Positions 3,950 to 17,494 of a stretch of DNA of 29,054 nucleotides are shown piece after piece. This DNA comes from a virus. The position numbers were made by a program, and so were the translations under genes. A model generated the notes under the pieces. The model ran no database searches, was not told the origin of the DNA, and saw nothing but the letters and a program-made list of their open reading frames with translations. Location: positions 1 through 29,054 of IMG/VR virus record IMGVR_UViG_3300025137_000185, one strand, 5' to 3'. Every line of letters starts with the position of its first letter. Position 1 is the stretch's first letter.

Positions 3950-4453
3950 ATGCCGTATAAAAGAAAAATTAAACCAATCACACAAAAAGACTTAGATAGA
4001 TTTTGGAGTAAAGTAGACATCAGGGAACCGAATGAATGCTGGAACTGGCAACTATCACCTACTAGACATGGATATGGCTTATTTGCCGCAGGAGGCACAC
4101 TACATAGATGCACACGTTTTGCATGGACACATGGGGATGGTCTATATGCAACTCCAATACAAGGTAAGTTAAGAATTACCACATCATGCGGTAATAAAAT
4201 GTGTTGCAATCCTAAACATATGAAGTTAAACAGTCAACAAGAAGTATTTGATAGAATACGTGAAGCAGGCACAATGACAGTTGGTAGCAAACATCGTATG
4301 AGCAAACTCACAGAAGCAGATGTAATCAATATAAGAGCACGTTATATAAGAAGAAGTGATACTGACGGATTAAAAGGTATTGCAGAGGATTATTCAGTAA
4401 CACCAGGCTGTGTCAGAGACATTATTATACGCAAAACATGGAGACATGTTTGA
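3950..4453 (+). CDS. Second HNH homing-type endonuclease
   Basis: A 167-residue relative of the HNH family. Residues about 17-45 carry the FWSKVD, ECWNWQ and RHGYG pattern typical of phage HNH proteins. RFAW (56-59) is followed by TSCGNKMCCNPKHMKL (78-93), the Cys-rich second half of the motif, and the C terminus (about 118-165: SKLTEADVINIRARY, then GIAEDYSVTPGCVRDII) is a DNA-binding helix-turn-helix. The usual His before the first Cys (as in 'CHxCDN') is replaced by Thr-Ser, so catalysis is uncertain. ATG 3950 is chosen over 3923 because it starts at MPYKRK and avoids overlap with the preceding frame. The gene overlaps the large terminase start by 16 bases. Confidence 0.82.
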   Translation: MPYKRKIKPITQKDLDRFWSKVDIREPNECWNWQLSPTRHGYGLFAAGGTLHRCTRFAWTHGDGLYATPIQGKLRITTSCGNKMCCNPKHMKLNSQQEVFDRIREAGTMTVGSKHRMSKLTEADVINIRARYIRRSDTDGLKGIAEDYSVTPGCVRDIIIRKTWRHV

Positions 4454-5676
4454 AACTTTCAAAGCCACAACAAGTAATCAGTAATGATGCTACTAGATTC
4501 AGAATAGTAGTTGCTGGCAGACGTTTTGGTAAAAGTATGTTAGCCATTAATGAGTTAGCAAAGTTTAGTGTTAAGCCCAAACAGAGAGTGTTAGCACTAT
4601 ATTCAACGTATAGACAAGCCAAAACAGTTATACTAGATGAACTATTAGATAGACTGTATGCCAAAAACTGGATCAAAGACGTAAACAAATCAGAACTTAC
4701 TATAACTTTAAAGAATGATAGCAAGATATTCATTAGAAGTGCTGACAACAGAGAAGCATTGCGTGGATCAAGATATGACTTTATAGTAATGGATGAGTGT
4801 GCTGACTTACACCCAGATGTTTGGAGCACAATATGTAGACCTATGTTAGCAGATAGTAATGGACATGCTATGTTTATTGGAACACCAAAAGGAAAAGGCA
4901 ATTGGTTTTATGACCTATATGTGAGAGCAGGTGCTGAACAAGAATGGAACAGTCACGTTTACCGAACAATAGATGGCGGTTGGATTACAGAACAAGAGAT
5001 TGAAAGTGCCAAAAGAGATTTAGATTCACGTGAATTTGCCCAAGAGTTTCTAGCAGAGTTTCAAGACTATAGTGGTATCATATACCATGCATTTACTGAA
5101 GACAACATAGTAGCCGACACATTCCCAGTAGAACAGTTACGCACATTGCATATTGGAATGGACTTTAACAACAGCCCAATGAGTGCTGTTATAGGATACA
5201 TGCCAAAGCCAGACCAATTACAAATTATAGACTTTATTGAAATATACCAATCCAATACATATGAAGTAATACAAGAGATTAAAACACGTTACCCAAATAG
5301 AAACTATATATGTTATCCAGATGCAAGTGGTAGTCACAAGTCAACTAACTCAAACCAATCAGACCACATTATACTTGCTAACAATGGCTTTAAGTTGGTT
5401 GTGGGCAAAACAAATCCGCCAGTATTAGATAGAATAAATGCAGTAAATGGATTGTTATGTAATGCAAAAGGTGAACGCAAGTTATTAATAGATCCTAAAT
5501 GTTCTAAGATAAGAGAGATGTTAATCAAAATGAGTTACAAAGAAGGAACTAGAATACCAGACAAGGACAATGTGTTAGACCACGCCGCTGATGCATTAGG
5601 ATACTTAGTGTATCAAAACTTTGGTATAACACGTCAACGAGATAAAGGCTATGCTCACAGTAGAAGGAGACTATAA
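4438..5676 (+). CDS. terL: Terminase large subunit (ATPase and nuclease)
   Basis: The DNA-packaging motor, which pumps phage DNA into the prohead and cuts it. All motifs are present in its 412 residues: Walker A GRRFGKS (27-33), Walker B FIVMDE (115-120), the coupling motif GTPKGKG (148-154), and the RNase H-like nuclease acidic residues in GMDFNN (D242), YPDASG (D295) and LDHAADALGY (D381, D385). The length is normal for the family. The start at 4438 lies within the last codons of the HNH gene and has no independent ribosome binding site, so it is probably coupled to it. The stop overlaps the next start (TAATG). Flanking genes fit a packaging module. Confidence 0.96.
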   Translation: METCLKLSKPQQVISNDATRFRIVVAGRRFGKSMLAINELAKFSVKPKQRVLALYSTYRQAKTVILDELLDRLYAKNWIKDVNKSELTITLKNDSKIFIRSADNREALRGSRYDFIVMDECADLHPDVWSTICRPMLADSNGHAMFIGTPKGKGNWFYDLYVRAGAEQEWNSHVYRTIDGGWITEQEIESAKRDLDSREFAQEFLAEFQDYSGIIYHAFTEDNIVADTFPVEQLRTLHIGMDFNNSPMSAVIGYMPKPDQLQIIDFIEIYQSNTYEVIQEIKTRYPNRNYICYPDASGSHKSTNSNQSDHIILANNGFKLVVGKTNPPVLDRINAVNGLLCNAKGERKLLIDPKCSKIREMLIKMSYKEGTRIPDKDNVLDHAADALGYLVYQNFGITRQRDKGYAHSRRRL

Positions 5677-6542: not shown

Positions 6543-6587
6543 AAGCAATTATTAAGTTATGGTTGGTAGTTTAGTATAGATAAAATA

Positions 6588-6672
6588 AAAGGGTTATTGA
6601 GCCTAATACACTAGTAACTATTTTAATTGTTAAAATTTATATCCCAAAGGATATGTTACCCAATAACCCTTT
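6588..6672 (-). ncRNA. Three-way-junction inverted-repeat element
   Basis: All arms nest perfectly. The closing stem 6588-6599/6661-6672 is 12 bp (AAAGGGTTATTG with CAATAACCCTTT). Inside it, 6614-6618 pairs with 6655-6659 (5 bp). Inside that are two adjacent hairpins, ATTTTAA-TTG-TTAAAAT (6620-6636) and ATATCC-CAAA-GGATAT (6639-6654). It lies downstream of the leftward operon. On the minus strand the closing stem is followed by CCCTTTTATTTTATC, so it could end that transcript as a structured 3' end. Because it is so symmetric it could also act as a folded single-stranded DNA element. No known family was recognised. Confidence 0.5.
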
Positions 6673-6732: not shown

Positions 6733-7194
6733 TTAAACTTTTATTACAACTTCTTTTTCGCCTCTGCTATTAAATATAGCAATAACATCTTCTGCACTGA
6801 AATACTGTTCGTGTATTATATGATCCTGGCTTCTAACTTGTCGCATTGCAAAGAACTTAGCCTTCTCTTCACTAAAAGTCCAGCTCTGATATTTACCGTC
6901 TAGACTGCCTGCCCTATATAATTTAATAGGCTGTTTGAATATACGATTGATTAATTTCAATTGATATGGGTTATCATACCTGGGCCAAACATCGTTCCAT
7001 ACATGTTGACACTCATATATACTTTCGCTATCTGTCCAAACATCTTCAATTAATTCATTAATGGTTTCATCGTTGAGTGGCAGTTCTAATATTGCCGAAT
7101 GCATTAATAAAGGTCTATTGCCTCTATTACAATCCAGCATTGCATTAAGAACGTCGTTGTCTGTTTCTGCTTGTAATCCGTTATAATATTCCAT
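6733..7194 (-). CDS. Putative ADP-ribosyltransferase (R-S-E type), 153 aa
   Basis: Proteins of this fold transfer ADP-ribose from NAD to a target; T4 Alt, ModA and ModB do this to host proteins during takeover. The C-terminal half carries the order expected of the R-S-E class: LYRAGS with R94, the 'STS'-like SWTFS (104-108) followed by EEKAKFFAMR, and near the end EKE (E146, E148) as the catalytic ExE in FNSRGEKEVVI. The N-terminal 85 residues are acidic and helical and of unknown role. It is the last gene of the leftward operon and is joined to the previous one by the repeated GGAAACAGCGTAATG junction. It lacks the 'ETA' C terminus of its neighbours. The assignment is from motifs only. Confidence 0.65.
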   Translation of the reverse strand: MEYYNGLQAETDNDVLNAMLDCNRGNRPLLMHSAILELPLNDETINELIEDVWTDSESIYECQHVWNDVWPRYDNPYQLKLINRIFKQPIKLYRAGSLDGKYQSWTFSEEKAKFFAMRQVRSQDHIIHEQYFSAEDVIAIFNSRGEKEVVIKV

Positions 7195-7799
7195 TACGCT
7201 GTTTCCTTAACAAAATCCATTCCTTCCTGTATTGATTCAATAAAGGGTGTATTAGTAATAGATTCCAATATTGTTTTATAATGTTCAAAGTCTTTTATTT
7301 CTATACCTAATCTAGCAGATTCTTTATCTTTCATGTTATGCTTATTAAATTCATCTTCGAAAGACTGTTCAAATAATTCTAAATTATCAATTTGCACACC
7401 TATCTTACCATCTCGTGTTACAAAAGAACAACCAGCCGGTGCTTCAGTTGGATTAGCCAACTTAACTATTTCATACTTTGCTCTGCTTATATCAACAGGA
7501 GCATAATAGGCTAAAGACATGTAGCCGTTTTCTGTAAAGGATTTTAGCACGTTATCACATTTATTATCTTTATAATACTTTGTGTTAAGGTCATGTTTCT
7601 TTATGCAAAATATAACAATGTTATCATTAATACCTCGCATACTTAAAAAAGTAGCCGCATAGTTAGGATTGTCTGCTAGAAAAACACAATCACGTTTGAT
7701 AGGCTTTATATAACCTTCTTCTAATATTTGATTTGCATGTGTTACAGTAGTAGCATGATACCACTTCTTAACTTTTTTGAGTTGTTTATAAGTTGCCAT
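7194..7799 (-). CDS. Putative ART-fold protein (Tpt1/PARP-like), 201 aa
   Basis: The N-terminal 110 residues match the ADP-ribosyltransferase superfamily pattern of the H-containing branch. WYHATT has H15 in the first strand, then a helix ANQILEEGY and RDCVFLADNPNYAATF (37-51), the 'VxLaDxxxxA' element seen in Tpt1/KptA RNA 2'-phosphotransferases and related NAD-binding proteins. Strand IVIFCIKKHDL and AYYAPVDISRAKYEIVKL follow. It could modify a protein or RNA with ADP-ribose or act on phosphorylated RNA; which one cannot be told here. The C-terminal 90 residues are acidic and helical and end VKETA. Start and end carry the GGAGACAGCG-type junctions shared by the operon. Confidence 0.55.
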   Translation of the reverse strand: MATYKQLKKVKKWYHATTVTHANQILEEGYIKPIKRDCVFLADNPNYAATFLSMRGINDNIVIFCIKKHDLNTKYYKDNKCDNVLKSFTENGYMSLAYYAPVDISRAKYEIVKLANPTEAPAGCSFVTRDGKIGVQIDNLELFEQSFEDEFNKHNMKDKESARLGIEIKDFEHYKTILESITNTPFIESIQEGMDFVKETA

Positions 7800-8014
7800 T
7801 ACGCTGTCTCCTGTGACATATCAACTACTCTATATAGTTCTTGCATGTCATCTGCCATACTTGACATTTCATTACCATTACCAAATTCTACCTTAAAGTT
7901 AAATCTGGCAAACATAGGATTCTTGCTCTCACCACAATCCATGACTAAGAACTTATTACCAATTGGTGTAGTTGCTTCTTTGTATCCCATCTTTTTCAAA
8001 TGTTTAATATCCAT
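7799..8014 (-). CDS. Small hypothetical protein of the leftward operon, 71 aa
   Basis: Third gene from the promoter. It begins MDIKHLKKMGY and has a beta-rich middle (IGNKFLVMDCG, MFARFNFKVEFGNG), then an acidic helix (MADDMQELYRVVDMSQ) and the shared C-terminal ETA. No family is recognised. The start and the previous stop share one base (TAATG), with GGAG from the end of the previous gene as ribosome binding site. Confidence 0.65.
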   Translation of the reverse strand: MDIKHLKKMGYKEATTPIGNKFLVMDCGESKNPMFARFNFKVEFGNGNEMSSMADDMQELYRVVDMSQETA

Positions 8015-8220
8015 TACGCTGTCTCCGAAAATAGTATGTTACCTATAGGGCCATTTGCGCCTACCAACATAAGTGTGCTATAACTACCTTCTTCAGTCAT
8101 TATAAATGTCGGCATAAAGTCTAACATCTCAATGGCAGATCGTTGAACTGCCTTATCTTCAGTCAGCTCTAATGCTAAAACGATTGCTTCTTGCTTTGTG
8201 TCTACTTTATATTCTTTCAT
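8014..8220 (-). CDS. Small hypothetical protein of the leftward operon, 68 aa
   Basis: Second gene from the promoter. It begins MKEYKVDTKQEAIVLALELT, has a helix followed by strands (FIMTEEGSYSTLMLVG) and ends LFSETA. It is soluble and acidic and matches no known family. Translation is coupled to the neighbours through one-base TAATG overlaps on both sides. Confidence 0.65.
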   Translation of the reverse strand: MKEYKVDTKQEAIVLALELTEDKAVQRSAIEMLDFMPTFIMTEEGSYSTLMLVGANGPIGNILFSETA

Positions 8221-8819
8221 TACGCTATCTCCATTACTTTACCATTCGATAAAATTTCAGCAAACCTACCGTGGCTAATACTGCCAGATGGACAATGTGT
8301 AGTAAAGTCTCCACCAGCATTTGAATAAACACCTCTAACTTTTACATCTGACACTTCTATTGGTCTAAATGCGTCACCAGGAACATTGCTTTCAGTTAGA
8401 CTTTTGGGTGTGCCCAATAATTCAATATTTTGAGCACCTTTGCCTATCTCATTACAAAATTTCAATAGCATTTCTTTGGTTAACCACAATGTGCCACAAA
8501 ACTCTGTGTAATCTTCGTCGCCTATAACACACATAGTATCTGTTAGTTCAATACCATCTTTCCATGCATGATACATACTACCACCAAACTTCTCTTGAGT
8601 TTGCAATGAACCAGCAACAAACTGTGATACATTAATCACAACGCCTGGTGCTCTATTAGTCTTAACAGATATACCTGCGTCGGGTCTAAAATCTTCTGTG
8701 GATGTTGGTGCGTTAAATGTAAAATCCTTAACTGCTTGTTTAACAAAGTGTGCCCTTGCTTCTACGTTTGAACAGTTATTCTCTTTTGCATAACCTCTTA
8801 TTTGTGCTGATGTAGCCAT
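8220..8819 (-). CDS. Hypothetical protein, first gene of the leftward operon, 199 aa
   Basis: It begins MATSAQIRGYAKENNC with a Lys-rich helical N terminus (about 1-32), then an apparently globular alpha/beta part with several Cys and His residues (C97, C108, C121, H175). It ends VMEIA, a variant of the ETA ending in the next three genes. The start has a clear AAGGAG and lies 27 bases downstream of the expected transcription start of the sigma70 promoter. As the promoter-proximal gene it should be the most strongly made of the five. No family is recognised. Confidence 0.75.
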   Translation of the reverse strand: MATSAQIRGYAKENNCSNVEARAHFVKQAVKDFTFNAPTSTEDFRPDAGISVKTNRAPGVVINVSQFVAGSLQTQEKFGGSMYHAWKDGIELTDTMCVIGDEDYTEFCGTLWLTKEMLLKFCNEIGKGAQNIELLGTPKSLTESNVPGDAFRPIEVSDVKVRGVYSNAGGDFTTHCPSGSISHGRFAEILSNGKVMEIA

Positions 8820-8852: not shown

Positions 8853-8881
8853 ATTATACCGGTTTTCCTGGTAGAAGTCAA
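8853..8881 (-). promoter_or_regulatory. Near-consensus sigma70 promoter of the leftward operon
   Basis: On the minus strand TTGACT (8881-8876) is followed by a 17-base spacer and TATAAT (8858-8853). This is one mismatch from the full consensus with ideal spacing. Transcription should start near 8846 and run leftward through five genes. It is the only such strong host-type promoter I found in the window. Confidence 0.88.
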
Positions 8882-9134: not shown

Positions 9135-10847
9135 ATGAGCCAACCTCTCACCTACGGCGAGTTTATCGCTGACATTCACATCTTATATGCAAGATATCAC
9201 GACACGTGGAATCTTTCCTGGCGTAGCTTCCTCGGTTCCGAGGAGTATAAGCAAGGTCGTTACCTTAAGATGTTCCAAGAAGACCAGCAAACAGGTTCTG
9301 AAGTAATTAACACATATACTGTAGATGAGTTCGGAAACACAACTGGCAAATCCAAATCAAAAGTAACACAACATTACGGTGGCACAGACACAGCATCGGC
9401 TTATGCTGGCAATGAAAGTGATGACAACAGTTACTATGCTGAAAAAATAAACAATGTTAGTTTCTACAACTATGTGAAACTGATTGTTAATGAATACAAT
9501 TCAATCCTATTCAAAAATCCAGCACATAGATTATTACCTGATACACCAGAAATGTTAGCATTTCAACAGAACTGTGATGGAACTGGAAACAGTTTACCAG
9601 AGTTCTTTAGTATGGTTGACACACTAGTAAGTGTATTTGGCGTGAGTTGGTTAAGTGTTGTTAAGCCTAGCGGTTCTGAAATACCTCGTTTTAGTGTTCA
9701 CAATCCACTAGACGTTACCAATTGGGAATTTGGTTATAACCAAGACGGTGACCAAGTGTTGCGTAAGTTAGTAGTTAAAGTAGCAGAAGAACAAAACCAA
9801 ACAGTATATAGATACTTTACACCAGACACAATTGAAACTGTGTTTATGAGTGATGATGAAGATTACTTACCACCAGATATTGAAGGTTTGTTCGAACAAG
9901 AAGAGGGTGTGTTTAGAGTAGTGCAAACAAATGAATTAGGATACATTCCTGTATTTCCAATTTATCAAGGCATACCTACATATCCAGGAGTTGGTAGTTC
10001 ACCAGTATTAGATGCAAGTATTATACAAAAAGAAGTATACAACTTGAATTCAGAAATATACAGTTCAATCAATTACAGCATTCATCCTACACTAGTAGTA
10101 GACGAAGCAACAGACGACCTTAACAATGGCGAGATTGGTGCCTCCGCAGGTAGTATAGTAAGAGTTAACAGTGGATTACAAGGTGAACAAAACTTTACAT
10201 ATGAGTTTAGACAACCAAACACTGATCCAGTAACTGAACTAAAAGACCTAATAGATAACAAAATACAAAAGATGTTAGAAACATGTATGATTAGAAGTGA
10301 TGAACTAATCAAAGCAAGTAGTAGTGCCGCAATGATAGAAACTCTAGATACTAAACTACAAGCATTTATAAGAAAGAAAGCGGTGCAAATGGAAAATGCA
10401 GAAAAACGTGCATTTGATATCTATCATGACTGGACTGGACAAAGCAATGAAGTAGAAATCAGTTATAATAGACAATACAACAACCGTGCTATGGAGCACG
10501 AACTAAAAGAATTAAACATGATGATGGATCTATATGATAGATTCTATCAGAATACTACCCAGTTTGTTGCAAGACACTTTAACAGTAGTCAAGAAGCAGA
10601 GGCTGAAGCACAAAGACTAGGTGGTGAAGGATTTCATACCCATGAAAACGAGAATGGAGAAACAATATTCATGCCATTCAAAACACACAAAGAATACGAA
10701 TTAACATTAGAGGCCAGTAACCCAGGCGTTGACTATGAAGAAAGTCAAAGCATAATGGGCCAAGGCGTCAAAGAAGATTTACGTGACAGACTGCGTGATA
10801 GACTCGAACAGTTATTGACTACGTCAACAACTACTAATAGTTTATAA
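9135..10847 (+). CDS. Portal protein
   Basis: The portal forms the dodecameric ring at one vertex through which DNA passes and to which terminase and tail attach. This 570-residue protein has the expected size, long helical segments and an acidic, glutamine-rich C terminus. The region around residues 335-420 (VVDEATDDL to ETLDTKLQAFIRKKA) resembles the crown/stem part of portals of the SPP1 gp6/DUF4055 type. Its position, directly before an acidic scaffold-like gene and the capsid gene, supports the call. The ribosome binding site is GGGGAA before ATG 9135. No single diagnostic motif exists for portals, so context weighs heavily. Confidence 0.82.
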   Translation: MSQPLTYGEFIADIHILYARYHDTWNLSWRSFLGSEEYKQGRYLKMFQEDQQTGSEVINTYTVDEFGNTTGKSKSKVTQHYGGTDTASAYAGNESDDNSYYAEKINNVSFYNYVKLIVNEYNSILFKNPAHRLLPDTPEMLAFQQNCDGTGNSLPEFFSMVDTLVSVFGVSWLSVVKPSGSEIPRFSVHNPLDVTNWEFGYNQDGDQVLRKLVVKVAEEQNQTVYRYFTPDTIETVFMSDDEDYLPPDIEGLFEQEEGVFRVVQTNELGYIPVFPIYQGIPTYPGVGSSPVLDASIIQKEVYNLNSEIYSSINYSIHPTLVVDEATDDLNNGEIGASAGSIVRVNSGLQGEQNFTYEFRQPNTDPVTELKDLIDNKIQKMLETCMIRSDELIKASSSAAMIETLDTKLQAFIRKKAVQMENAEKRAFDIYHDWTGQSNEVEISYNRQYNNRAMEHELKELNMMMDLYDRFYQNTTQFVARHFNSSQEAEAEAQRLGGEGFHTHENENGETIFMPFKTHKEYELTLEASNPGVDYEESQSIMGQGVKEDLRDRLRDRLEQLLTTSTTTNSL

Positions 10848-15237: not shown

Positions 15238-15581
15238 ATGCAAGAGCATTTAAAAGAGACCTGAAAAAACTGGATAAGTTTGTTTATGGGCGTTTTGCCA
15301 AGAGCATTTTACAAGAATTTAAAAGAGAAACACCACGTGGAGATACTGGTGTTGCAAAACGTAATGTTAAAGTAAAAGCATCTAGAAGTAAAAAACAAAT
15401 AGCAGTTATAACCAGTTATGGTTATGCTGATGTATTAGATGAAGGATTGTATCCTAATCCACCAAAAGGCGGAACTGGCAAAACAATTGGAGGATACAGC
15501 ACTCAAGCACCAAAGGGTATGAGTGAACCTACACTAAAAGAAGCAAGAAAAGATTTTAATAATTTCGTGAGGAAACTATAA
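15213..15581 (+). CDS. HK97 gp10-like tail/head-tail protein
   Basis: 122 residues with the HK97 gp10-like signature: a helical basic N terminus (FKRDLKKLDKFVYGRFA), TPRGDTGVAKRNVKV (about 40-54), SYGYADVLDEG (about 68-78) and GGYSTQAPKGMSEPTLKEA near the end. This family is usually found near tail-completion genes and is thought to act in tail or head-tail joining. It overlaps the GT end by 25 bases and joins the tape measure with a one-base overlap (TAATG), so it is expressed with them. Confidence 0.82.
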   Translation: MARTNATLNARAFKRDLKKLDKFVYGRFAKSILQEFKRETPRGDTGVAKRNVKVKASRSKKQIAVITSYGYADVLDEGLYPNPPKGGTGKTIGGYSTQAPKGMSEPTLKEARKDFNNFVRKL

Positions 15582-17494
15582 TGGCGGCACCAATCGCAAC
15601 AAGACTAATATTAAATACTAAATCATTTACCAAAGGACTAGGCACAGCAACTAGAGGACTAGGAATGCTTGGCGGAGCATTAGGTAAAGTGGGAGGCATA
15701 ATTGCCAAATTTGGACTGGCATTAGTAGCCGCAACAGCAGGTTTAGCCGCTATAGTAATGCGTAGTGCAAACTATATAGATAGACTGGGCAAAGTATCAA
15801 AAGTAACTGGTGTTGCAACAGACACCTTACAGAAGTTTGGGTTTGCGGCAGAACAAGCCGGTGTTACATCAGACAATGCCGCGTTGGCAATGAGACGTTT
15901 CTCACGTAGATTAGGTGAAGCACAAAAAGGAACAGGTGAACTATTACCAGCATTAAGACGTTTAGGTATTGATGTTAAAGACAGTAGTGGACAATTTAAA
16001 AGTGCAGAACAAATATTATTTGAATTTGCAGATGGTATTCAAAACACAGAAGGCGCATCAGCCAAATTGGCTTTGGCGTTTAAGGCGTTTGACTCCGAGG
16101 GTGCAGAATTAGTAGGAACACTTGAAGAAGGATCAGAAGGCCTTAAGGATTTCTTTAAAAGAGCAGAAGCACTAGGCATAGTATTAGACACTAAAACTAT
16201 TGAAGGTGTAGAAGACTTCAATGACAGTCTTAATGAACTACAACGTTTATTAGGTGGTGTTGTTAATAGAATGGTTGGGGCATTAGCACCAGCACTAGAT
16301 ACTGTTGTTAAAAACATGACAACATTTATTATTGAAACAGCAGAAGCACACGGTGGCTTCGAAGAATTTGGTAAGTTCTTAAAAGACAAGTTCTTAACTG
16401 CATTACAATTATTAGGACGAGGTTTCTTTCAATTATCTAGAATTATTGTCGCTGTGTTTAACGCAATCCTTACTGGATTAAGTCAATTAGGTATCATTAA
16501 TGAAATACAAGGAATAGACAAAGAAATAGCAGACCTTAAAGAACAATCAAACAAAAGCGGATGGTGGAGTAGATTTAACTTTGCTACAGGTGAAGCCGCA
16601 CAAATACTTAAAGATGAATTTGGAACTGCTTTCTTACTCACAGACGAAAACATTGAAAGAGCAATTAAGGCATTAGAAGAAGGAAAGAAGAGAATGAAAG
16701 AGGGCGGTGCTATTAGTATAGATCCTATAGCAATGCCATCAGAAGAAACATTCCAAGCATACTTTGATTTCTTAGAATCATTTAAAGAAAAAACAAACCA
16801 AGCAGGTGAGAATATAACTGAAACTATTGTTACTGCAACCAAAACTCAACAAAACGGTTTTGAAAAGATGCTAGATTCAATATTTGGTGTTGAAAGAATG
16901 GACAAGTTTTATCAAGCAAGTGAAAAACATGCTGAAAAGGCTGTTTCTAATATTGCCGAATTTATAACAGTATCATTTGAAATGTTAGGCAAAACACTTG
17001 GTGAATTCTTTGAAAGTGTAAGAGAAAAACTAGCCGCAAGTGGTGTAGGTGACTTTATGAAAACATTAGAAGATGGCTTTGTTAAAGCAGGACAACTATT
17101 AGAAGATGCACTTACTGATGCAGTATTAACAGGTAAAGCCAGTTTTAGTGACCTAGCAGACCATATTAAGAAAGTGTTAGCCAAAGCACTTATACAAAAG
17201 TTTATCACAGGACCAATACTAGGACTTATGGGACTAGCAGACGGTGGACCAGCAAAAGCAGGAACTCCATATGTTGTTGGTGAAGAAGGACCAGAACTAT
17301 TTGTTCCAAATCAAAGCGGAACAGTTATACCAAATGACGAAATGGCAAGTGGTGGTAGCGGAATGGGTGGACAAACAAATGTTACATACAATATTACGTC
17401 AACTTCCGCCGAATCTTTCAAGCAATTAGTTGCTAGGGATCCCGAGTTCATATTTAACGTTACCCAAGCAGGCGCTAGGAGGCAACCAGCATAA
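15581..17494 (+). CDS. Tape measure protein
   Basis: The tape measure sets tail length and occupies the tail lumen. This 637-residue protein has a Gly/Ala-rich hydrophobic N-terminal region (about 25-60), long helical and coiled-coil stretches (about 70-240 and 390-540), a membrane-type segment around 280-300 (QLSRIIVAVFNAILTGL), and near the C terminus (about 551-585) the ADGGPAKAGTPYVVGEEGPE motif typical of siphovirus tape measures. The length is short, which suggests a short tail of about 90-100 nm if the usual ratio of 1.5 Å per residue holds (inference). It follows the chaperone genes as expected. Confidence 0.92.
   Translation: MAAPIATRLILNTKSFTKGLGTATRGLGMLGGALGKVGGIIAKFGLALVAATAGLAAIVMRSANYIDRLGKVSKVTGVATDTLQKFGFAAEQAGVTSDNAALAMRRFSRRLGEAQKGTGELLPALRRLGIDVKDSSGQFKSAEQILFEFADGIQNTEGASAKLALAFKAFDSEGAELVGTLEEGSEGLKDFFKRAEALGIVLDTKTIEGVEDFNDSLNELQRLLGGVVNRMVGALAPALDTVVKNMTTFIIETAEAHGGFEEFGKFLKDKFLTALQLLGRGFFQLSRIIVAVFNAILTGLSQLGIINEIQGIDKEIADLKEQSNKSGWWSRFNFATGEAAQILKDEFGTAFLLTDENIERAIKALEEGKKRMKEGGAISIDPIAMPSEETFQAYFDFLESFKEKTNQAGENITETIVTATKTQQNGFEKMLDSIFGVERMDKFYQASEKHAEKAVSNIAEFITVSFEMLGKTLGEFFESVREKLAASGVGDFMKTLEDGFVKAGQLLEDALTDAVLTGKASFSDLADHIKKVLAKALIQKFITGPILGLMGLADGGPAKAGTPYVVGEEGPELFVPNQSGTVIPNDEMASGGSGMGGQTNVTYNITSTSAESFKQLVARDPEFIFNVTQAGARRQPA

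What the first reader, a model, noticed from the sequence alone, without database searches (positions are those of the whole stretch)
6733..7799. Two adjacent ADP-ribosyltransferase-like genes in one early-type operon
The sequence shows, side by side, a protein with the R-S-E order (R94, SWTFS, EKE near the end) and one with an H-type ART beginning (WYHATT, then VFLADNPNYAATF). They come from different branches of the ART superfamily, so this is not a tandem duplication. T4 uses Alt, ModA and ModB to modify host RNA polymerase and translation. Here the pair sits in the middle of a siphovirus structural region, on the opposite strand, with three unknown small proteins. One transferase and an RNA-directed or reversing partner is one speculative reading.
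Basis: partly seen in the sequence, partly recalled or inferred. Interest (0 to 1): 0.85.

Follow-up and report, generated by a model that had tools for sequence, protein, structure and literature searches.

The report
Phage operon with two ADP-ribosyltransferase-like genes
A marine phage carries, in a swappable early-promoter gene island, one well-supported but never-annotated ADP-ribosyltransferase next to a second protein that looks like the NAD-binding half of an RNA-repair enzyme, suggesting it chemically tags host molecules early in infection.

Summary
ORF1 (6733-7194, minus, 153 aa) and ORF2 (7194-7799, minus, 201 aa) are the last two genes of a five-gene, translationally coupled operon behind one near-consensus sigma-70 promoter, antisense in a siphovirus structural region. 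ORF1 belongs to an unannotated phage family (phrog_4776; mycobacteriophage cluster L, Gordonia and marine phages). Over 38 aligned homologues R94, S104, E146 and E148 are essentially invariant. A fairly confident AlphaFold model puts them in R-S-E order on ART-like strands; its best PDB matches are mostly ARTs, at modest Z (4-5). I judge ORF1 an R-S-ExE mono-ADP-ribosyltransferase, probably arginine-directed. ORF2 is weaker but real: its first ~80 residues match only the C-terminal NAD lobe of Tpt1/KptA (20.2 bits against at most 7.8 in 2000 shuffles), keeping His, Thr and both Arg that contact ADP-ribose. It lacks the RNA lobe, so it cannot be a canonical 2'-phosphotransferase; nothing supports a reversing role. 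The pairing is not conserved: related phages lack the cassette, or (one contig) carry a different YH-starting gene in ORF2's place. The island, its promoter and a structured RNA absent from Rfam are conserved. New variant of a known kind; moderate interest.

The parts
6733..7194 (-). ORF1, 153 aa: R-S-ExE ADP-ribosyltransferase-like protein (phrog_4776 family); R94, S104/T106, E146/E148
7194..7799 (-). ORF2, 201 aa: residues ~4-80 like the NAD lobe of Tpt1/KptA (H15, T17, R36, R55), then ~120 aa of unknown relation
7799..8014 (-). 71-aa gene of the same operon, function unknown
8014..8220 (-). 68-aa gene of the same operon, function unknown
8220..8819 (-). 199-aa first gene of the operon, function unknown
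8853..8881 (-). sigma-70-like promoter TTGACT-17-TATAAT (11 of 12) ahead of the operon; equivalents at the same place in relatives
7192..7206 (-). coupling junction GGAAACAGCGTAATG (Shine-Dalgarno plus stop/start overlap) between ORF2 and ORF1
7797..7811 (-). coupling junction GGAGACAGCGTAATG
8012..8026 (-). coupling junction GGAGACAGCGTAATG
8218..8232 (-). coupling junction GGAGATAGCGTAATG
6587..6672 (-). long hairpin followed by T-rich sequence downstream of ORF1, likely operon terminator; shared with cassette-free relative L011

Best explanation
The cassette is an accessory (moron-like) operon transcribed antisense to the late genes by host RNA polymerase from a strong sigma-70 promoter, so probably made early or independently of late transcription (inferred). 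ORF1 folds as an R-S-E ADP-ribosyltransferase: R94 on the first strand holds NAD, S104-W-T106 shapes the pocket, and the E146-K-E148 loop positions an acceptor, most likely an arginine of a host protein (residues shown, fold predicted; acceptor inferred from the ExE rule that also describes T4 ModA and ModB). ORF2 is a stand-alone relative of the NAD lobe of Tpt1/KptA that should still bind NAD (His15, Thr17, Arg36, Arg55 retained) but lacks the RNA lobe, so it would transfer ADP-ribose to something other than an RNA 2'-phosphate, or act as a small-molecule NAD user; its ~120-residue C-terminal part would set specificity (inferred). Together they would alter host machinery or defence early in infection.
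For: ORF1: phrog_4776 match E 4.8e-14; homologues in 85 phage records and 48 viral contigs; near-invariant R, S, E, E; AlphaFold pLDDT 78, pTM 0.70 with strands at 90-95 (R94), 102-106 (S104), 148-152 after the EKE loop; the great majority of the top 50 VIA-align rows are ART superfamily (ExoS Z 5.3, rmsd 4.1, 110 aligned; KptA/Tpt1 4-4.9; ART2.2 4.8; Vis 4.8; C3bot2 4.6; VIP2 4.1) or the VIP2-like domain of anthrax lethal factor; profile-profile alignment with T4 Mod proteins puts R on R and SWT..A..FA on SFS..A..FA and beats 200 of 200 column shuffles. ORF2: NCBIfam KptA E 3.2e-4, Pfam PTS_2-RNA E 0.0032, shuffle test, retained contact residues by alignment against the Tpt1 structure paper PMC6333775. 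Operon: promoter, TAATG couplings, same-place promoter in five relatives.
Against: No sequence search, even with the 38-row profile, reaches a named ART in PDB or Pfam; Z scores of 4-5 are in the range the tool calls common. Foldseek's own PDB E-values are all above 0.05. ORF2's structure could not be predicted (pLDDT 42.5), its second Tpt1 histidine is Phe40, and it has no relatives in any collection searched. The pair is not conserved together outside this phage. No target, activity or expression data.
Confidence: 0.62

Rival explanations
1. ORF1 is an active ART but ORF2 is a catalytically dead or non-ART helper (antitoxin-like binder, substrate adaptor or NAD sensor).
For: Second catalytic His of Tpt1 replaced by Phe40, no relatives to show conservation of H15, low-confidence model. 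ORF2 is translated directly ahead of ORF1 with stop/start overlap.
Against: H15, T17, R36 and R55, all at NAD-lobe contact places of Tpt1, line up; the score is far above shuffles.
Confidence: 0.25
2. A phage-borne toxin-antitoxin-like module: ORF1 is a toxic ART and one of the upstream small proteins (68 or 71 aa) is its antidote, giving superinfection exclusion.
For: Small coupled ORFs in the same operon; ART toxins with small partners occur in phages (PMC9503650).
Against: None of the small proteins matches an antitoxin, macro or glycohydrolase family; the 68- and 71-aa genes are not adjacent to ORF1; in L001 ORF1 is kept but a 110-aa and a 130-aa gene stand where ORF2 and the 71-aa gene are in the window.
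Confidence: 0.12
3. ORF1 is packaged in the virion and injected, like T4 Alt, rather than made early.
For: It lies between terminase and portal, where many phage ARTs sit (PMC9503650); homologues occur inside very large proteins (L041 1003 aa, L072 at least 1798 aa).
Against: It is on the opposite strand with its own promoter, not in the late operon; the window protein has no MuF or head domain.
Confidence: 0.1
4. ORF1 has an ART-like fold but not ART activity; the conserved WTDSEN motif marks another function.
For: W53, D55, E57 and N58 are as conserved as the catalytic set; weak structural Z.
Against: The complete R-S-ExE set is invariant, with no degenerate members except one Q for R (L072).
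Confidence: 0.08

Closest known systems
T4 ModA and ModB (NC_000866 11908-13130)
   Same: Two ART genes side by side, 4-base overlap, minus-strand operon with small genes; R-S-ExE active site (PMC10468400)
   Different: ModA and ModB are related to each other (27% identity); here the two proteins come from different branches, ORF1 is more compact (R to S 10 residues against about 25) and only remotely alignable to Mod
Tpt1/KptA RNA 2'-phosphotransferase
   Same: ORF2 residues 4-80 match the NAD lobe with YH.T, R..V.L and ..R
   Different: No RNA lobe, no Arg18-His19-Arg68 equivalents, second His is Phe, extra ~120 aa at the C-terminus
phrog_4776 proteins (mycobacteriophage cluster L gp114-136, Gordonia phage Octobien14 gp9)
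   Same: ORF1 is a short member of this family, about 26-33% identical, same invariant residues
   Different: The actinophage members carry a longer N-terminus and lie near tRNA or integrase genes with no ORF2-like neighbour; all are annotated 'hypothetical protein'

Membership tests
R-S-E clade of ADP-ribosyltransferases (ORF1) | Arg on first core strand | tested here: met
   R94 in strand 90-95; 37 of 38 homologues
R-S-E clade of ADP-ribosyltransferases (ORF1) | S-x-[ST] on second strand | tested here: met
   S104 38/38, T106 36/38 (S in the other two), strand 102-106
R-S-E clade of ADP-ribosyltransferases (ORF1) | [EQ]-x-E loop before last strand | tested here: met
   E146 and E148 37/37, strand starts at 148
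R-S-E clade of ADP-ribosyltransferases (ORF1) | ART split beta-sheet fold | tested here: inconclusive
   Top structural matches mostly ARTs but Z 4-5.3
R-S-E clade of ADP-ribosyltransferases (ORF1) | Catalytic residues meet in one NAD pocket | not testable with these tools
   Model coordinates not available
R-S-E clade of ADP-ribosyltransferases (ORF1) | NAD-dependent transferase activity | not testable with these tools
   needs assay
T4 Mod family (ORF1) | Sequence-profile homology | tested here: inconclusive
   hhalign P 0.011, motif residues aligned, beats 200/200 column shuffles
Tpt1/KptA (ORF2) | NAD lobe with H-x-T, R, R contacts | tested here: met
Tpt1/KptA (ORF2) | N-terminal RNA lobe with Arg-His-Arg of the tetrad | tested here: not met
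   ORF2 starts at profile position ~91; lobe absent
Tpt1/KptA (ORF2) | Second His (V-H-L) | tested here: not met
   Phe40 at that place

The most novel reading that the evidence does not exclude
A two-enzyme phage operon in which an arginine-type R-S-ExE transferase is coupled to a stand-alone Tpt1 NAD lobe re-targeted to a new acceptor, the second enzyme being exchangeable between phages at a repeated junction (ORF2 here, an unrelated YH-starting 110-aa protein in L001), so the two act as a combinatorial NAD-dependent attack or counter-defence set.
Probability: 0.17. Interest if true: 0.72.

Novelty: new variant of a known kind. Interest (0 to 1): 0.5.

Why it matters
A whole phage protein family (phrog_4776, present in many sequenced mycobacteriophages that can be grown and edited) goes from 'hypothetical' to a testable ADP-ribosyltransferase. 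ARTs were counted in only about 3% of siphoviruses and podoviruses in a 2022 survey (PMC9503650), and two from different branches in one small operon would be a useful case of phages combining NAD-using enzymes. A free-standing Tpt1 NAD lobe would show how an RNA-repair enzyme can be re-purposed.

Tried and rejected
Sequence searches of ORF1 and of its 7- and 38-row profiles against PDB and Pfam: no named ART. ORF2 against phages, plasmids, viral contigs and bacterial genomes: no relative. ORF2 structure from a single sequence: pLDDT 42, PDB matches meaningless. Idea that the ORF1-ORF2 pair is a conserved module: rejected; no other ORF near ORF1 homologues scores as KptA-like and neighbours vary. 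Idea that L001's 110-aa YH protein is a diverged ORF2: BLASTP E 35, KptA profile 0.7 bits, so unproven. Tandem duplication rejected. Portal scan for more islands gave only known contigs. First RNA-motif scan used a wrong gap length and hit chance sequences. VIA-align lists for ORF1 do not exclude families not shown.

Full report
What is there. The window is an IMG/VR virus record of 29,054 bases with terminase (4438-5676), portal (9135-10847) and tape-measure (15581-17494) genes on the plus strand, i.e. a tailed phage of siphovirus type; the terminase is nearest to Pelagibacter and Vibrio phages at about 40% identity. Between terminase-side small genes and the portal lies a minus-strand operon of five genes, 8819 down to 6733: 199, 68, 71, 201 and 153 aa. 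A single near-consensus promoter, TTGACT-17-TATAAT at 8881-8853, precedes it. Each of the four internal junctions is a copy of GGAGAYAGCGTAATG, a ribosome-binding site with overlapping stop and start; no other place in the window matches it with at most one mismatch, and shuffles give 0.8 matches at up to three mismatches against 7 observed.

ORF1. It matches phrog_4776 (E 4.8e-14), a family without function, and 85 phage records at about 30% identity, mostly mycobacteriophages (those examined are of the cluster L subfamily Lclasvirinae), where it is annotated 'hypothetical protein'. A profile scan gave 48 viral contigs. In the 38-row alignment R94 is kept in 37, S104 in 38, T106 as T or S in 38, E146 and E148 in all 37 that reach that far; a second motif, W-T-D-[ST]-E-N around residue 57, is equally conserved. 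This is the R-S-ExE signature stated for the arginine-specific T4 enzymes ModA and ModB (PMC10468400). AlphaFold (38-row alignment, pLDDT 78, pTM 0.70) gives five helices then strands 90-95, 102-106, 127-132, 137-141 and 148-152, so R, S and the ExE loop occupy the places expected in R-S-E enzymes. Structural alignment lists ExoS, Tpt1/KptA, ART2.2, Vis toxin, C3bot2, VIP2, BECa, HopU1, iota, C2-I and the VIP2-like domain of anthrax lethal factor almost to the exclusion of other folds, though at Z 3.5 to 5.3. Profile-profile comparison with the T4 Mod family scores 24.0 against a maximum of 20.4 in 200 column-shuffled controls and superposes the motifs. Purifying selection is indicated against the L001 copy (dN 0.061, dS 0.229).

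ORF2. NCBIfam's KptA model (E 3.2e-4), Pfam PTS_2-RNA (E 0.0032, below its curated cut-off) and a PHROG of unknown function all match its first 80 residues. A profile built from E. coli KptA and seven phage KptA proteins scores it 20.2 bits; 2000 shuffles reach 7.8 and 2621 other phage ORFs reach 8.5. The alignment covers only the C-terminal NAD lobe of Tpt1. In the CthTpt1 structure that lobe is residues 86-182, His101 and Thr103 hold the ADP-ribose and Arg121 and Arg139 the phosphates, while the essential Arg18, His19 and Arg68 lie in the RNA lobe (PMC6333775). By alignment ORF2 keeps H15, T17, R36 and R55 at the NAD-lobe places (matching of R36 to Arg121 and R55 to Arg139 is my inference from the alignment), has Phe40 for the second His, and has no RNA lobe at all. 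It is therefore Tpt1-lobe-like but fails membership of Tpt1/KptA.

How general is the pair. Relatives with 72-99% identical portals have the island without the cassette (L009, L011, L014, L015, L019). One contig, L001 (terminase 83%), keeps ORF1 at 90% but has a different 110-aa gene starting MILYH in ORF2's place, with a similar junction; its ART nature is unproven. Among all loci fetched with ORF1 homologues, no other KptA-like neighbour exists. So the pairing is a local assembly in an exchangeable island, not a conserved two-component system. Every complete island examined nevertheless carries the same minus-strand promoter, 11 or 12 of 12 to consensus.

Mechanism. Shown by sequence: coding, conservation, operon layout, promoter consensus. 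Predicted: the ART fold of ORF1. Inferred: arginine as acceptor, early expression, host targets, NAD use by ORF2. The most likely account is an accessory early operon whose ORF1 mono-ADP-ribosylates a host protein, with ORF2 a second, differently aimed NAD-using enzyme. Structural prediction jobs were limited to two and ORF2's failed, so its fold remains open.

Novelty. ART pairs in phages are known (T4 modA/modB), and viral ARTs are surveyed (PMC9503650; its supplements could not be read, so this family may be listed there under another name). New here, as far as the held databases show, are the assignment of phrog_4776 to the R-S-ExE class and the stand-alone Tpt1-type NAD lobe beside it. 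That makes it a new variant of a known kind.

Noticed in passing
L009 6894-6997 minus; L015 1679-1781 minus; L019 1084-1186 minus; L014 8417-8539 minus; L011 10245-10345 minus; L096 6130-6234 plus; L100 7108-7231 plus; L001 1336-1466 plus: A structured RNA of ~105-125 nt plus terminator, each behind a consensus sigma-70 promoter, conserved at the same island in phages whose portals are only ~47% identical. A model built from six members found a further one, L001, at 48.8 bits, E 1.9e-7. Four of 16 consensus pairs show compensatory change. No convincing Rfam match. Not found in the window, where the ART cassette sits. Looks like a new phage small RNA.
   Followed up: partly
window 7192-7206, 7797-7811, 8012-8026, 8218-8232; L001 near 506 and 843: Repeated coupling junction GGAGAYAGCGTAATG at every gene boundary of the cassette, also at the L001 boundaries in altered form; could serve as homology for gene swapping.
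   Followed up: partly
L014 8594-8665 minus: A tRNA gene (Asn by its GTT anticodon as read by eye) in the same island.
   Followed up: no
L096 4110-6082 plus: Island of this relative carries a 305-aa P-loop ATPase-like and a 351-aa gene antisense to the portal, ahead of the RNA.
   Followed up: no
L041 1612-4623; L072 1-5397: ORF1-type ART domains inside 1003-aa and at least 1798-aa proteins, the latter with HELGH-like metalloprotease motifs; possible polyvalent injected proteins. L072 has Q in place of the catalytic R.
   Followed up: no
L001 506-838 plus: 110-aa MILYH protein gives a weak PADLOC DpdH match (E 2.3e-5) whose meaning is unclear.
   Followed up: no
window 7018-7036 minus (ORF1 residues 53-58): W-T-D-[ST]-E-N motif in the helical N-terminal part of the ORF1 family is as conserved as the catalytic residues; role unknown.
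   Followed up: no
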